Assembly (NCBI GenBank): GCA_900314975.1 | Contig: OMXI01000036.1 | Coordinates: 1 to 49,544 of the forward strand | Origin: an uncultured Eubacteriales bacterium | GTDB lineage: Bacteria; Bacillota; Clostridia; Oscillospirales; Ruminococcaceae | Length of the DNA stretch: 49,544 nt | Direction of reading: 5' to 3' | In this document: positions 1 through 5,868 of the stretch, one piece after another | How positions within the stretch are numbered: position 1 is the stretch's first letter | Layout of the letters: every line of letters begins with the position of its first letter | Translations under genes and position numbers: made by a program | Notes under the pieces: generated by a model | The model's database searches: none | What the model saw: the letters and a program-made list of their open reading frames with translations, nothing else | Told to the model about the DNA's origin: nothing

Positions 1-45
1 GCGGATTTATTTGCACATACTTATAGATGTGTACCCGAATGGGGT

Positions 46-98
46 AAAATGATTGCTCGCAATCATTTTGGGGCATTGACCGGAAAGCCCCCAAATAA
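46..98. other. Two adjacent hairpins downstream of DAHP synthase
   Basis: Bases 46-56 (AAAATGATTGC) and 59-69 (GCAATCATTTT) form a perfect 11-bp inverted repeat with almost no loop. A second arm pair, TTTGGGGC (66-73) with GCCCC plus AAA (about 90-98), follows directly. They lie beyond the 3' end of the minus-strand DAHP synthase gene. Neither has a convincing U-run on that strand, so terminator function is only possible. The hairpin resembles the AAAAATGC/GCATTTTT hairpin at 2796-2814. I see no gene in bases 1-195. Confidence 0.4.
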
Positions 99-195
99 AA
101 TGCGCCCCGCGCGGCAAATTCTGATTTATCTGAATAAACTATCAATGATAATTATACCAATTTTCCGCCGCCTTGTCAACAAAGTGTTTTCGCCA

Positions 196-1218
196 TTATT
201 CTACATCGTCAACAGGCTTGCCCATGAACTCTGCGAGCGCCTTAATCTTTTTCATAGTATCCGCGAAAGCCTGCGGTGTAAGCTGCTGCGAACCGTCGCT
301 GAGTGCTTTCTTGGGGTCGCAGTGTACCTCTATTTCAAGTCCGTCGCAGCCTGCCGCAACTGCCGCAAGAGACATAGGCTCTACCAGCTTTACAAGCCCT
401 GTTGCGTGGCTTGGGTCAACGACTATCGGCAGATGTGATTTTTGTTTGAGCAGTGCCACCGCCGAAATATCCAGCGTGTTTCTCGTCATCGGCTCAAAGG
501 TGCGTATGCCTCTTTCGCACAAAATGACCTTTGAGTTGCCCTCGCTCATAATGTACTCCGCACTCATCAGAAGCTCCTCGAGGGTGCTTGAAAGACCGCG
601 CTTTAGCAGTATCGGCTTGTCGCAGCGACCCAGCGCCTTGAGCAGCTCAAAATTCTGCATATTCCTTGCGCCGACCTGTATAACGTCAACCTCTGCGAAC
701 ATATCGATATGCGCAAGCGACATTATCTCGGTAACTATCGGCAGACCCGTTTCCTTCTTGGCTTTTAGCAGCAGCTGTATGCCCTCTTCTCTCATCCCTT
801 GGAACGAGTACGGCGAAGTCCTTGGCTTGAACGCACCGCCGCGCAGCATTGTCGCGCCAGCCTGTTTGCAGGCTATTGCGGTTTCCATAAGCTGCTTTTC
901 GCTCTCGACCGAGCAGGGACCCGCAATTATCTGCGTTTTGCTGCCGCCGATAAGTCTGCCGCCGATATCAAGCACGGTGTTGTCGGGGTGGAACTTGCGG
1001 TTTGCATTTTTGTAAGGCTCCTGCACTCTGCGCACTGCCTCGACGCAATCGTTAGCCTCGATAGCCTCGATATCGATATGCACGGTATCACCGATAAGCC
1101 CGATGATGTTTGAATGTACGCCCTGCACAAGATTTGTCTTTACGCTGTAGCCCTCCAGCCAACTGACAAGCTCATTTACCTGCTGCTTTGTCGCTGTGTT
1201 TTTCAGTACGATTACCAT
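196..1218 (-). CDS. aroF: 3-deoxy-7-phosphoheptulonate (DAHP) synthase
   Basis: Condenses phosphoenolpyruvate and erythrose 4-phosphate to DAHP, the first step of the shikimate pathway to Phe, Tyr and Trp. The 340 residues match the Thermotoga-type layout: an N-terminal ferredoxin-like (ACT-like) regulatory domain of about 75 residues starting MVIVLKN, a linker with FHPDNTVLDIGG, then the TIM-barrel catalytic domain opening with IIAGPCSVES and containing GGAFKPRTSPYSFQG, VGARNMQN and the C-terminal DPSHATG. In this family the N-terminal domain mediates Tyr/Phe feedback inhibition. Expression appears to be controlled by the Phe-rich leader peptide and terminator immediately upstream (1236-1485). 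No cotranscribed neighbour is visible. Length and motifs are normal, so the family call is secure; which aromatic amino acid inhibits it is not visible. Confidence 0.97.
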   Translation of the reverse strand: MVIVLKNTATKQQVNELVSWLEGYSVKTNLVQGVHSNIIGLIGDTVHIDIEAIEANDCVEAVRRVQEPYKNANRKFHPDNTVLDIGGRLIGGSKTQIIAGPCSVESEKQLMETAIACKQAGATMLRGGAFKPRTSPYSFQGMREEGIQLLLKAKKETGLPIVTEIMSLAHIDMFAEVDVIQVGARNMQNFELLKALGRCDKPILLKRGLSSTLEELLMSAEYIMSEGNSKVILCERGIRTFEPMTRNTLDISAVALLKQKSHLPIVVDPSHATGLVKLVEPMSLAAVAAGCDGLEIEVHCDPKKALSDGSQQLTPQAFADTMKKIKALAEFMGKPVDDVE

Positions 1219-1235
1219 TTACTATCAATCCTTTC

Positions 1236-1279
1236 AAAAATAAAAATGACCGCAGCCTTGCGCGTGCAAAGCTGCGGTC
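1236..1279 (-). terminator. Attenuator terminator in front of DAHP synthase
   Basis: On the minus strand GACCGCAGC (1279-1271) pairs perfectly with GCTGCGGTC (1256-1248), with a smaller inner TTGC/GCAA pairing, and is followed by an ATTTTTATTTTT tract (1247-1236). It lies between the leader peptide stop (1307) and the aroF start (1218). Its 5' half overlaps bases 1270-1261, which can instead pair with 1345-1336 inside the leader coding sequence. That gives the terminator/antiterminator switch expected of a transcription attenuator. Confidence 0.85.
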
Positions 1280-1306
1280 TGATATACATATTTAAGCTAT
1301 GAAAGC

Positions 1307-1423
1307 CTAACTGCAATACCGTTCCAAAGCACCCTTTTGCACACGACCGAAAAGCCCTGACCAGAAAAAGCCAAAGCTAAAAAAGAAGTATGTAAAGACT
1401 GCTGACAATATTACAGTAAACAT
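1307..1423 (-). CDS. Phe-rich leader peptide of the DAHP synthase attenuator
   Basis: A 38-codon ORF, too short for usual gene calling, beginning MFTVILSAVF and continuing TYFFFSFGFFWSGLFGR before ending ERYCS. It holds nine Phe, two Tyr and one Trp, with eight of the Phe clustered between residues 10 and 25. An SD-like GAAAGGAA sits about 8 bases upstream, and a good promoter lies just before it (1457-1485). Position, composition and the terminator after it are those of a pheL-type leader: ribosomes stalling at Phe codons when Phe-tRNA is scarce would leave codons 27-30 free to pair as antiterminator. The peptide itself need have no function. The start codon choice is secure because it is the first ATG after the promoter. 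Confidence 0.85.
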   Translation of the reverse strand: MFTVILSAVFTYFFFSFGFFWSGLFGRVQKGALERYCS

Positions 1424-1456
1424 CTTTTTTGTTCCTTTCACAGATTTAATAGATAC

Positions 1457-1485
1457 AGCATAGCACCTCGATTGATTTTTGTCAA
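1457..1485 (-). promoter_or_regulatory. Promoter of the aroF attenuator transcript
   Basis: Minus strand TTGACA (1485-1480), 17-base spacer, TATGCT (1462-1457). Transcription would start near 1450, about 27 bases before the leader peptide ATG. Confidence 0.8.
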
Positions 1486-1494
1486 GTGAATTTT

Positions 1495-2763
1495 TTATGA
1501 ACTGCTGTCTGTTTTATATTTTTCTACCAGATGGTAGACCTTGACATCGACCTGCGCATCAACAAGCACGCCCTGCGCGGTATACTCCTCGCTGAACACC
1601 CTGCCGTCTATGCGTATGGTGTTCAAAAGCGCGCCCTTATCAAACGGCAAAAGCAGCTTGCAGCGTATGCACGACTGCGGCAGAGCATTCTGCACCGCAA
1701 GCAGCAGTTCGTCAAGCCCCTCGCCGCGCTTTGCGGATATTTTGACTGTGCCCTGCTGCTGCGAGATATCGAGCATATCGATGTTTGGAACCTTGTCGCA
1801 CTTGTTAAGCACCGTAACAACGGGTATCCCCGAGCAGCCAAGCTCGCCCAGCAGCTCGTTTGTGACCTTTACCTGCTGCGCGCAGTCCTGTGACGAAGCG
1901 TCGCACACGTGGATTATCACATCAGCGTTTGCAGCCTCCTCAAGCGTTGATTTGAACGCCTCTACCAGCTTGTGCGGCAAGCGCCTTATAAGACCGACTG
2001 TGTCCACCAGCGTCACGCTGCGCCCGTCGGGCAGCTCTATCGCCCTTGACGTTGTTTCAAGCGTGGCAAACAGCTTATTCTCGGCAAGCACGCCCGCCTG
2101 CGTGAGCGTATTGAGCAGCGTTGACTTGCCCACGTTTGTATACCCCACTATCGCTGCAACCAGCACGTTGTCCTTTTTGCGCCGCTTGTGCAGCATATCG
2201 CGCCGCTTTTCTATCTCTTTAAGCTCGTCCGACAGCTTTTCGATATGCTCGCGGATATGCCGCTTGTCCGTTTCGAGTTTTTTCTCGCCGGGACCTCTTG
2301 TGCCTATGCCGCCGCCCGTTCGCGAAAGCTCTATGCCCTTGCCCGTAAGGCGCGGGAGCATATACCTGCTCTGCGCAATCTCGACCTGCAAACGCCCCTC
2401 GTGCGTAGTCGCTCTCTGCGCAAAGATATCAAGGATAAGCATAGTGCGATCGATAGCGTAGACACCGCACGCTTTTTCGATGTTTCGCATCTGCGTGCCC
2501 GTCAGCTCGCAGTCAAAGACTATCCTGTCGATATCCAGCTGTGCGCAAAGCTGTGCCATTTCCTCAAGCCTGCCTGCGCCTATGCAGGTCGCGCTGTCGT
2601 ATGCGGGGCGCTTTTGCACGACCCGCGCAGCGACCTCTCCGCCTGCGGTGCGCACAAGCTCTTCAAGCTCGTCCAGCGAGGTCTGCATATCATATGTACC
2701 CAGATCCGCCGCCGCTATCAGCACTTTTTCGGGTGCAGCCGTGTTTTCCAAATATTCTGCCAT
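1495..2763 (-). CDS. hflX: GTPase HflX
   Basis: Ribosome-associated GTPase that splits stalled or stress-inactivated 70S ribosomes. About 422 residues: an N-terminal HflX domain with DELEELVRTAGGEVAARVVQ and TCIGAGRLEE, a Gly-rich linker (TGGGIGTRGPGEKKLETDKR), a coiled segment, then the G domain with P-loop GYTNVGKSTLLN, switch motif DTVGLIRRLPH and NKCD. I place the start at the ATG at 2763 (MAEYLENTAAPEKV), where family similarity begins; the frame stays open upstream to a TTG at 2862 but that stretch is the translated end of a dispersed repeat. No strong SD lies before 2763 (an AAGGG about 15 bases upstream is weak), perhaps because the repeat displaced the native leader. A promoter near 3015-3044 would give a leader of about 245 bases. 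Confidence 0.95.
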   Translation of the reverse strand: MAEYLENTAAPEKVLIAAADLGTYDMQTSLDELEELVRTAGGEVAARVVQKRPAYDSATCIGAGRLEEMAQLCAQLDIDRIVFDCELTGTQMRNIEKACGVYAIDRTMLILDIFAQRATTHEGRLQVEIAQSRYMLPRLTGKGIELSRTGGGIGTRGPGEKKLETDKRHIREHIEKLSDELKEIEKRRDMLHKRRKKDNVLVAAIVGYTNVGKSTLLNTLTQAGVLAENKLFATLETTSRAIELPDGRSVTLVDTVGLIRRLPHKLVEAFKSTLEEAANADVIIHVCDASSQDCAQQVKVTNELLGELGCSGIPVVTVLNKCDKVPNIDMLDISQQQGTVKISAKRGEGLDELLLAVQNALPQSCIRCKLLLPFDKGALLNTIRIDGRVFSEEYTAQGVLVDAQVDVKVYHLVEKYKTDSSS

Positions 2764-2767
2764 ATCA

Positions 2768-2830
2768 GTTGGGGGAAACCCTTTTGGATGAAGGCAAAAA
2801 TGCGAAGCATTTTTATCCCCCCAAACCCCC
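2768..2830 (-). repeat. Variable tail of the dispersed repeat, with hairpin
   Basis: Between the repeat core and the hflX start lies a perfect 8-bp hairpin, AAAAATGC (2796-2803) / GCATTTTT (2807-2814), and a G/C block starting GGGGGAAACCC (2771). A closely similar stretch occurs at 26763-26793 in front of the V-ATPase F gene: GGGGGAAACCC, TTT, a GGA-rich centre, AAGG and an A-run. The copy at 18.0 kb lacks this tail. Confidence 0.6.
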
Positions 2831-2936
2831 TTCCTAAACCTTTTAATGCTTTTTCGGCACAAGGTGTCTGCGACACCTTATCCCGAAAAAGTAATAGAGA
2901 GTTCAAAAAGAGTTTGAGAAAAAACACTCCCAAGAG
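2831..2936 (-). repeat. Dispersed structured repeat, copy A
   Basis: About 106 bases, read on the minus strand, matching 18015-18122 on the plus strand along nearly its whole length: both begin CTCTTGGGAG, share GAACTCTCTATTACTTTTTCG, and end GCATTAAAAGGTTTAGGAA. A central stem-loop uses outer arms CTTTTTCGG (2849-2857) / CCGAAAAAG (2883-2891) and inner arms AAGGTGT (2861-2867) / ACACCTT (2873-2879) around a five-base loop (CGCAG on the minus strand). It would be transcribed in the hflX leader. No ORF, terminal inverted repeat or target duplication is apparent. Confidence 0.85.
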
Positions 2937-3014
2937 AATACCACAGCTGATATAACAAATTATTCAGAACAGCACAGCTATTCCCGCAAGAGTACAACTT
3001 AACATCTTTATCTT

Positions 3015-3963: not shown

Positions 3964-5868
3964 TCAGTTAGGCTTTGTTGCCGCACCTGCTGCGGCTTTT
4001 TCGATGTTGTAGACAAACACAGGTGTATTTATCGGGATATTGTTGTAAACATACTTTGCATCCTCGACTGAAAGGTTGATACAGCCGTGCGAGCCGCCCG
4101 AAGAGGTCTTATACTTGTTTCCGCCGAACACGCCGTACTGCCACGTTGCATCGTGGAAACCTGCGCCGTACAGCGAGAAGTTTGTCCAGTACTGCACCTG
4201 AACGTCCCAGCCCTCGCCCTTGAGCCTTGATGGGCTTTGCTTTGCCCATACCTTGAATACGCCCTCACGGGTGTATCTGTTTTTATCGTACAGATATCCC
4301 GATACAAAGTCAAATTCCTTTGCTATCTTGCCGTCAGCATAGTAATACATATGCTGTGCGGCGATATCTATCTCAACATAGGTGTTTCCGTAGTCCTTAT
4401 CCTTTGTCCACACGCTCTCGTCACAGGCGTAGATGAACTTGGAGTCGGGGTTCTGGTAGTACACGGGCTGTATCTTTCCGCCGCCCGATACTATGGTGTC
4501 TCTGATAAGCTCCATAGTCTTTTGCTGGTCTATCCACCAGCCGTAGCAGCCTGTATCGTTGCCCTGCTTATCGCCGCCCTTGATGGTGATAACACCCTTC
4601 TTGGTGGTCTTGAACTGTCTGTCCTTTGCGTAGGTGTCGTACTTTTCGGCAAGACCTTCAACGTAGGTCTCCACCTGCTTCATATCAACGACGATACCGT
4701 CCTTTGTCTTGCTGTCAAAGCTTACCCACGACATTATCTGCGTTCCGCTTATGGTCTCCTGGCTATGTATGAAATCAAGAGTGATGGTCATACTGTTCAT
4801 CTTGTTGAGCCTGTCACATTCGTCTTTAAGCGAGTCTGCGGTTATCTTTGCAGTCTCGTAGCAGTCAACGCCCGATATGTCGATAACATATCTGCCTGCG
4901 TCAAGGCTCTGCTCAACGTAGTCGAAAAGATTCTTTATCTTATCCACTGTGACCTTGTCGCCGGGCTTTTCCTTGATTATAATGTAGCCCGAGCCGTCTG
5001 TGCTCTTCTGGATAGTTGCATTTTCGGGAGCCTTGCCCGATGCGGAGGACATTACCTTCTTTTTCAGCAGAGTTTCGAGCATCACCTTATCGTATGTGAA
5101 CTTCTCGTTCAGCTCAAACTGCGTATTGCTGAACTTTGCACCGAACCAGTTGTAGTGGTTCTGCGAGTTGTAGAACTTTTCTACCTCGTACTGCGTTTTG
5201 TCTGTATAGCCTATGTCTTTAAGCGGAAGCTGTATCTGGGAGTTGTCAAGGCGGACAATGGTTATGCTGTCCTTTAGCTCGGACTTCTCCTTGAGCATAT
5301 TGTATGCCTCTTCCTTGGTCTTTCCGCTTACATCGATATTGTTGATGAAAGTGTTTGCAAGGAACACGCCCTTGTATTTTACCATGCCCACGATATATGT
5401 TATCGCAAGACCGAGTACCACTGCACCCAGCAGCGAAAGGCACACTATCAGCGGTGCTTTGGACTTTTTCTTTCTTCTTGCGGGCGGTCTTCTCTTTGGA
5501 GCTGCGCCCTGCGGTCTTTTTCTCTGTGCGCCGTCTCTCGACTGCGGAGGTCTTCTGCGCGCGCCCGAGCCGTTTCGTCTGTTTGCCATATCGTTATCAC
5601 TATCTCTTTGTGCAGGGAAAGATGCCGTTCTTCTCACACCTGCGGCATTTCTGTCGCTGCCAACGGCGTTGACAGCCTCTGTAGCTTTTTTCAGTGCGGA
5701 ATCGACCTTGGGCTGACTGCCGTTATCTTGTATCACCTCGTCCTCAAAGGACACCGCAGCCATATTTTTAGCTATCATTTTAGCTTTTTCCTGTTTAGCG
5801 GCTGCTATAGCTGATTCAAGGTCAAGCTCTTTATCCTGCTCCTTTTCGTTTCTGATGTTCTCGTCCAT
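3964..5868 (-). CDS. L,D-transpeptidase (YkuD family) with PG-binding domains
   Basis: 634 residues. Residues 1-138 are cytoplasmic and rich in Arg, Lys, Pro and Gln; one membrane segment spans about 139-161; the exterior part carries repeats of the kind seen in VanW-like/PG_binding_4 proteins (about 170-470) and a C-terminal YkuD domain with SHGCINLS, catalytic Cys about residue 596. These enzymes form 3-3 cross-links in peptidoglycan or attach groups to meso-diaminopimelate, and resist most beta-lactams. The long basic cytoplasmic tail is typical of clostridial forms. The ATG at 5868 follows AAAGGGG closely, and a promoter lies at 5922-5950. Monocistronic, convergent with the M23 gene; both neighbours act on the cell wall but need not be linked. 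Confidence 0.93.
   Translation of the reverse strand: MDENIRNEKEQDKELDLESAIAAAKQEKAKMIAKNMAAVSFEDEVIQDNGSQPKVDSALKKATEAVNAVGSDRNAAGVRRTASFPAQRDSDNDMANRRNGSGARRRPPQSRDGAQRKRPQGAAPKRRPPARRKKKSKAPLIVCLSLLGAVVLGLAITYIVGMVKYKGVFLANTFINNIDVSGKTKEEAYNMLKEKSELKDSITIVRLDNSQIQLPLKDIGYTDKTQYEVEKFYNSQNHYNWFGAKFSNTQFELNEKFTYDKVMLETLLKKKVMSSASGKAPENATIQKSTDGSGYIIIKEKPGDKVTVDKIKNLFDYVEQSLDAGRYVIDISGVDCYETAKITADSLKDECDRLNKMNSMTITLDFIHSQETISGTQIMSWVSFDSKTKDGIVVDMKQVETYVEGLAEKYDTYAKDRQFKTTKKGVITIKGGDKQGNDTGCYGWWIDQQKTMELIRDTIVSGGGKIQPVYYQNPDSKFIYACDESVWTKDKDYGNTYVEIDIAAQHMYYYADGKIAKEFDFVSGYLYDKNRYTREGVFKVWAKQSPSRLKGEGWDVQVQYWTNFSLYGAGFHDATWQYGVFGGNKYKTSSGGSHGCINLSVEDAKYVYNNIPINTPVFVYNIEKAAAGAATKPN

What the first reader, a model, noticed from the sequence alone, without database searches (positions are those of the whole stretch)
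1236..1485. Complete phenylalanine attenuator upstream of DAHP synthase, with a readable switch
Seen: promoter TTGACA-17-TATGCT, a 38-codon leader ORF with nine Phe (eight between residues 10 and 25), a perfect 9-bp terminator with U-tract before aroF, and a competing 10-bp pairing (one G-T) of codons 27-30 (1345-1336) with the terminator's 5' half (1270-1261). A ribosome stalled at the Phe cluster leaves 1345-1336 free, so the antiterminator forms; a ribosome reaching the stop at 1307 covers it and the terminator forms. Ribosome-mediated Phe attenuation is well known in enterics (pheA, pheST), while Firmicutes usually use TRAP or T-boxes. Such a leader on a clostridial DAHP synthase is, as far as I know, not widely described.
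Basis: partly seen in the sequence, partly recalled or inferred. Interest (0 to 1): 0.78.

Follow-up and report, generated by a model that had tools for sequence, protein, structure and literature searches.

The report
Phenylalanine leader-peptide switch before DAHP synthase
Upstream of the gene for the first enzyme of aromatic amino acid synthesis, this bacterium carries a short phenylalanine-rich reading frame and RNA hairpins that very likely switch the gene on when phenylalanine runs short, and many relatives carry the same kind of switch.

Summary
On the minus strand lie a promoter, an SD-preceded 38-codon ORF with nine Phe codons (1423-1307), a terminator hairpin (1279-1248, 14 pairs rather than 9) and a competing pairing of codons 27 onward with the terminator's 5' arm and loop, before a DAHP synthase gene (1218-196).

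Relatives carry the proof. An SD-preceded Phe-rich ORF lies before 69 of 85 related DAHPS genes (1 of 85 reverse complements, 20 of 425 shuffles). All 71 leader loci examined have a terminator of -10 kcal/mol or better (37 of 355 shuffles). Antiterminator strands fit their own terminator better than others' (26 loci: -15.0 vs -12.2 kcal/mol; 26 more from 22 families: -14.1 vs -9.9; 0 of 20,000 permutations each).

Best reading: classical ribosome-mediated Phe (perhaps Phe+Tyr) attenuation. It is a new member of a known kind, more widespread than I found in print; the nearest printed case is an Acholeplasma aroF uORF. There are no expression data.

The parts
1457..1485 (-). promoter TTGACA-17-TATGCT
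1307..1423 (-). leader ORF, 38 codons, nine Phe, SD-like GAAAGGA upstream
   Evidence: relatives
1388..1399 (-). strand 1 (protector), codons 9-12 GTC-TTT-ACA-TAC, near-fixed third positions in relatives
1324..1345 (-). strand 2 (antiterminator 5' strand), codons 27-33 and part of 34
1281..1320 (-). predicted hairpin nested between the antiterminator strands, spans the leader's stop codon
1261..1277 (-). strand 3: terminator 5' arm (part) and loop, pairs with strand 2 or with strand 4
1248..1279 (-). intrinsic terminator hairpin, 14 pairs, U-tract 1247-1236
   Evidence: relatives
196..1218 (-). DAHP synthase gene, 340 aa, TIGR01361/PRK08673 type

Best explanation
A ribosome-mediated transcription attenuator that senses charged tRNA-Phe (perhaps tRNA-Tyr too) and controls a DAHP synthase gene. 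When Phe is short, the ribosome slows at Phe codons 10-20, holds the protector strand open and leaves codons 27-34 free to pair with the terminator's 5' arm and loop, so RNA polymerase reads through. When Phe is plentiful the ribosome runs on to the stop codon, breaks the nested hairpin and blocks codons 34-38, and the terminator forms. When the leader is not translated it folds on itself and the terminator forms too. Shown by sequence: ORF, terminator, competing pairings and their conservation. Inferred: translation, stalling, read-through, and Phe as the signal.
For: SD-preceded Phe-rich ORF in 69 of 85 related upstreams against 1 of 85 reverse complements and 20 of 425 shuffles; with the same threshold no other amino acid of eleven tried exceeds 7 of 85. 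Terminator at or below -10 kcal/mol in 71 of 71 leader loci against 37 of 355 shuffles; 7 of the 9 loci without a leader have no terminator-like site in the last 200 nt. Own-versus-swapped antiterminator pairing: 26 order-level loci -15.0 vs -12.2, 26 class-level loci -14.1 vs -9.9 kcal/mol, 0 of 20,000 permutations each; against shuffles of strand 2, 24 of 71 and 12 of 26 loci in the top 5%. Protector pairing in the top 5% in 19 of 46. Folding ahead of a stalled ribosome gives the antiterminator, ahead of a ribosome at the stop it does not. The gene makes the first enzyme of the Phe pathway.
Against: No expression data. The window locus's own pairings do not beat shuffles. Once the 3' arm is made the terminator is the minimum in every stalled state, so the switch must be kinetic. 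The stop codon lies about 27 nt past the core of strand 2, so blocking by a ribosome at the stop is indirect. Nine of 85 order-level loci (16 by the rule) and 34 of 60 class-level loci show no leader by the rules used; the second DAHPS copy has none seen in 13 loci. Order-level loci share ancestry. Nearly all leaders also hold Tyr (69 of 71 and 26 of 26), so Phe alone is not shown.
Confidence: 0.88

Rival explanations
1. The nascent peptide itself, not slow decoding, arrests the ribosome (as TnaC does for tryptophan, recalled): the VFTYFF or FYFSAGYF stretch would sense free Phe, Tyr or another metabolite in the exit tunnel.
For: The VFTY stretch is kept in 45 leaders, and SAG with codons AGC-GCN-GGN recurs in nine loci of distant families.
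Against: Third positions of the VFTY codons are kept too and pair with strand 2, which points to RNA; other leaders keep only Phe/Tyr richness. In known peptide-arrest systems high ligand causes arrest (recalled), which would give the wrong sign for a biosynthetic gene with this layout.
Confidence: 0.05
2. A plain terminator or RNA element with U-rich sequence; the ORF is a by-product and is not translated, or the terminator only ends hflX transcripts.
For: Phe codons are U-rich by nature, and hflX lies upstream on the same strand.
Against: SD, start codon and an open frame with AGC, GGC, TAC and TGG codons in frame are kept; shuffles give such ORFs in 20 of 425 against 69 of 85; a promoter lies between hflX and the leader; antiterminator pairing follows its own terminator.
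Confidence: 0.04
3. Another amino-acid sensor (T-box) or an RNA-binding protein (TRAP-like) works the terminator.
For: The genome has 13 T-box matches, and 8 of 60 class-level DAHPS genes have a T-box.
Against: No Rfam family above its cut-off, T-box included, at this locus (six sub-threshold matches, five to eukaryotic small RNAs and one to a streptococcal sRNA).
Confidence: 0.02

Closest known systems
uORFC-13-1 motif, Acholeplasma aroF (PMC8632094, section 26 read)
   Same: Phe-coding uORF, promoter, terminator, upstream of the same gene; the authors suggest Phe-dependent attenuation
   Different: 24 examples, said to be only in Acholeplasma and environmental sequences, with at least one Phe codon; here Clostridia, with 4-8 Phe in 12 residues in 69 loci and tested three-way pairing
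Enteric Phe attenuators (pheA leader, pheST leader); recalled
   Same: Phe-rich leader peptide, protector, antiterminator and terminator
   Different: Other genes; leader sequence unlike; here the ORF is longer (38 codons) and strand 2 lies inside it
Leader peptides in Firmicutes: hisS/hisZ and his operons, ilv-leu of S. aureus (passages of PMC2965389, PMC9413887, PMC5794164)
   Same: Leader peptide rich in the sensed amino acid, with terminator and antiterminator, in Firmicutes
   Different: Other amino acids and genes; the His cases are reported in few species
T-box leader (RF00230)
   Same: Senses uncharged tRNA; found on 8 of 60 class-level DAHPS genes
   Different: No T-box at this locus; T-box DAHPS genes fall in another part of the tree

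Membership tests
ribosome-mediated (leader-peptide) transcription attenuator | short ORF with start signals and a cluster of codons for the end-product amino acid | tested here: met
   conserved in 69 of 85 relatives
ribosome-mediated (leader-peptide) transcription attenuator | intrinsic terminator between leader and structural gene | tested here: met
ribosome-mediated (leader-peptide) transcription attenuator | antiterminator that excludes the terminator | tested here: met
   (computed only; window locus alone not above shuffles)
ribosome-mediated (leader-peptide) transcription attenuator | protector pairing within the leader | tested here: met
   family-level: 19 of 46 in the top 5%, mean z -1.57; window locus alone not above shuffles
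ribosome-mediated (leader-peptide) transcription attenuator | ribosome at the stop codon blocks strand 2 | tested here: inconclusive
   direct cover fails by footprint; indirect block through the nested hairpin is predicted
ribosome-mediated (leader-peptide) transcription attenuator | read-through rises on starvation for the amino acid | not testable with these tools
   no expression data
T-box leader RF00230 | match to the covariance model above cut-off | tested here: not met
   no T-box match at E up to 5 in 1-3000
enteric Phe leader as an Rfam family (name recalled) | match to the covariance model | tested here: not met
   no such match; low similarity expected for leaders
uORFC-13-1 (Acholeplasma aroF) | sequence and structure consensus of the motif | not tested
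   only the text of section 26 was read; the figure is not held

The most novel reading that the evidence does not exclude
The leader is one member of an old, class-wide family of Phe/Tyr leader-peptide attenuators that is a standard control of one group of DAHP synthases in Clostridia, standing where T-boxes stand in another group; and some of its members (leaders with the FYFSAGYF stretch and near-fixed codons AGC-GCN-GGN) use the nascent peptide or an extra RNA element besides slow decoding.
Probability: 0.3. Interest if true: 0.7.

Novelty: new member of a known kind. Interest (0 to 1): 0.5.

Why it matters
Firmicutes are usually thought to sense amino acids through T-boxes and repressors. 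Here the entry enzyme of the aromatic pathway has a Phe/Tyr leader in 22 of 43 sampled families of the class (families, leaders), in a genome whose trpE, trpS, hisS, alaS, asnS and leuA follow T-boxes. If expression tests agree, leader peptides are an ordinary control of aromatic synthesis in these bacteria, and the contrast between leader-bearing and T-box-bearing DAHPS genes lets one study how two tRNA-charge sensors replace each other.

Tried and rejected
Rfam on the locus: six sub-threshold matches, none a leader family. Column-wise covariation on the 45-row alignment A1 was not attempted: by eye, strands 2 and 3 slip by one column between clades, so own-versus-swapped pairing was used instead. 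The strand-1 motif (18 bases) was sought in 29 genus genomes: 24 have exactly one hit with 0-1 mismatch, each just upstream of DAHPS; the other hits have two mismatches, and the reversed control pattern also gives scattered hits. The second DAHPS copy was checked for a leader: none seen in 13 loci, no Rfam match in the four loci searched. The six genes after T-boxes were named from pieces, most below the models' full-length cut-offs; two of the eight T-box loci gave no named gene. Print: eight searches showed no report of this leader in Ruminococcus or other Clostridia; most subscription papers are not held, so this is weak.

Thresholds and dropped rows: the cut of four Phe in 12 residues was fixed, and six Phe/Tyr. 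One search had 110 loci, 87 distinct upstreams; L030 and L031 (second copy) were dropped, leaving 85. Searches used the 71 of 72 loci with at least three Phe; L107 was dropped by hand although it has a strong terminator. One search used 26 of 71 (greedy, dissimilar terminators). Searches used 45 loci with FTY, leaving out L017, whose terminator call looked wrong; one search used 46. The 60 class-level loci were picked by hand, one to three per family, from the places that one search listed (it did not list all); L143, L173 and L191 are short. One class-level terminator is weak (L162, -6.0 kcal/mol), and no shuffle control was run for class-level terminators. The tree used 60 class-level, 29 hand-picked order-level and 4 second-copy N-terminal pieces; support values were not looked at.

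Full report
What is there. On the minus strand of the window lie, in order, hflX (2862-1495), a promoter (1485-1457), an SD-preceded ORF of 38 codons with nine Phe (1423-1307), a 14-pair terminator hairpin with a U-tract (1279-1248) and a DAHP synthase gene (1218-196; TIGR01361 389 bits, cut-off 268). Of 216 SD-preceded ORFs of 12-70 aa in the window, the leader is the only one with more than four Phe in 12 residues; it has seven. The leader RNA folds at -78.7 kcal/mol, z -7.4 against 200 shuffles. The window's genome (G000, 2.92 Mb) shares its genus with genomes whose contig lengths equal those of R. albus KH2T6, R. albus 8 and R. bicirculans 80/3 records.

Conservation of the ORF. All 29 genus genomes have a DAHPS match; in G006 only the second copy was found. 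With 80 further loci there are 87 distinct upstream regions, 85 without two second-copy genes. Of these 85, 69 have an SD-preceded ORF with at least four Phe in 12 residues; reverse complements give 1 of 85, dinucleotide shuffles 20 of 425, and the same threshold for eleven other amino acids is met by at most 7 of 85. Seven more look like Phe/Tyr leaders by eye, farther upstream, with fewer Phe, or without my SD motif (L087, L093, L097, L099, L106; L105, L110). Nine show none (L048, L061, L062, L063, L066, L077, L084, L092, L107). In 45 leaders with the FTY motif the codons GTC-TTT-ACA-TAC are almost fixed, third positions included: GTC in 40, TTT in 45, ACA in 45 and TAC in 43 of 45.

Conservation of the switch. 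A terminator-like hairpin at or below -10 kcal/mol lies after the Phe cluster in 71 of 71 leader loci and in 37 of 355 shuffles of the same regions; at or below -15 it is 63 of 71 against 6 of 355. Of the nine loci without a leader, seven have no such site in the last 200 nt, L048 a weak one, L107 a strong one. The pairing between the region after the first Phe codons and the terminator's 5' arm plus loop is better than in shuffles of that region (mean z -1.42; 24 of 71 in the top 5%); the window locus itself ranks 53 of 200. In 26 loci with dissimilar terminators, own pairs average -15.0 and swapped pairs -12.2 kcal/mol; no permutation of 20,000 did as well. Strand 2 sits around codons 26-36 in most long leaders, ends at the stop codon in short ones (L053, L059, L064, L068, L072) and runs past it in the YFYFYF type. 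Compensatory changes can be read between relatives: L053 TGAGCTGA with CAGCTC, L064 TAAGCTGA with CAGCTT; L022 AAAGC with GCTTT, L019 AAAGA with TCTTT. The near-fixed codons pair with strand 2 more than shuffles do (mean z -1.57; 19 of 46 in the top 5%), though not at the window locus taken alone (rank 121 of 200). This pairing is my explanation of their fixed third positions.

How it works. Folding the RNA ahead of a ribosome with codon 13 to 20 in the A site, up to 1260, gives an antiterminator that encloses a hairpin at 1320-1281 spanning the leader's stop (-29.8 to -33.9 kcal/mol); with codon 25 it is -20.2 and with the stop codon -2.2 (lengths differ, and the 14-nt leading edge is a recalled value). 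Early stalling thus lets the antiterminator form, and completion of the leader does not. When the 3' arm is included, the terminator is the minimum in every state, so read-through depends on the antiterminator forming first: a kinetic switch, as is usual for attenuators (recalled). Untranslated, the leader folds on itself and leaves the terminator.

How far it reaches. TIGR01361 was found in 250 of 293 genomes of the class. From the listed places 60 were picked, from 43 families. An SD-preceded ORF with at least six Phe/Tyr in 12 residues lies upstream in 26 of 60 (22 families, the window's own family among them), against 0 of 60 reverse complements and 2 of 300 shuffles; all 26 have a terminator-like hairpin, one of them weak. 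Own strand pairs average -14.1 against -9.9 kcal/mol when swapped, 0 of 20,000 permutations; against shuffles the mean z is -2.11, 12 of 26 in the top 5%. Most of these leaders are too unlike each other for copied sequence to explain the fit. Tyr is commoner here (12% of residues against 6% at order level), so Phe+Tyr sensing is open. Eight of the 60 have a T-box on the gene's strand instead (L135, L147, L149, L153, L154, L158, L159, L164), none of them among the 26; on a tree of N-terminal pieces they group together with some unlabelled genes, apart from the leader-bearing ones. The window's genome has 13 T-box matches, five over the cut-off; of the eight loci held, six precede asnS, hisS, leuA, alaS, trpE and trpS. 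So the tryptophan branch follows a T-box and the common first step a leader peptide.

What is known. Passages of PMC2965389 report His leaders in bacilli, to its authors the first outside Proteobacteria and Actinobacteria; passages of PMC9413887 add candidate His attenuators in the B. cereus group, Eubacteriales and Erysipelotrichales; passages of PMC5794164 describe a Leu-rich attenuator in S. aureus. Section 26 of PMC8632094, read whole, describes uORFC-13-1, a Phe-coding uORF before aroF in Acholeplasma with a terminator, 24 examples. That is the nearest precedent and lowers the novelty: the principle on this gene is in print for another lineage. Eight searches showed nothing for Ruminococcus or other Clostridia, but most subscription papers are not held.

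Verdict. The finding is real and well conserved, the mechanism is the classical one with high probability, and the interest lies in its reach across the class rather than in a new principle. Open: Phe alone or Phe plus Tyr, whether SAG-type leaders add something, and all expression evidence.

Noticed in passing
L112 about 5222-5320, minus strand (upstream of the second DAHPS copy, 59% identical, in the window's genome), and the same place in L113-L124: After the promoter, all 13 loci hold a conserved A-rich element resembling ACATAAAAGCTTAAAAGCATAAAAGCTTTAAAGC and no leader ORF was seen. In L112 a chorismate mutase/prephenate dehydratase gene lies upstream on the same strand. It may be an operator or RNA element.
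   Followed up: partly
leaders in L086, L095, L133, L136, L137, L140, L151, L169, L180: Leaders of distant families share a [FY]-[FY]-S-A-G stretch with near-fixed codons AGC-GCN-GGN; L133 holds it although its leader missed my rule. Whether RNA or peptide holds it is unknown.
   Followed up: no
L053, L059, L064, L068, L072: In short leaders the strand-2 motif CGTGTG is kept but read in another frame (SCVS-stop in L053, against R-V in long leaders), so it seems to be held as RNA and not as peptide.
   Followed up: no
window 179-151, minus strand: A full-consensus promoter (TTGACA-17-TATAAT, TG before the -10) just after the DAHPS gene, pointing to the contig end.
   Followed up: no
window 1-105, minus strand; and upstream of the second DAHPS copy in L117: By eye the two places share GGGGGCTTTCCG, runs of C and a TTCGG-ACACAT stretch; perhaps a dispersed repeat at contig ends.
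   Followed up: no
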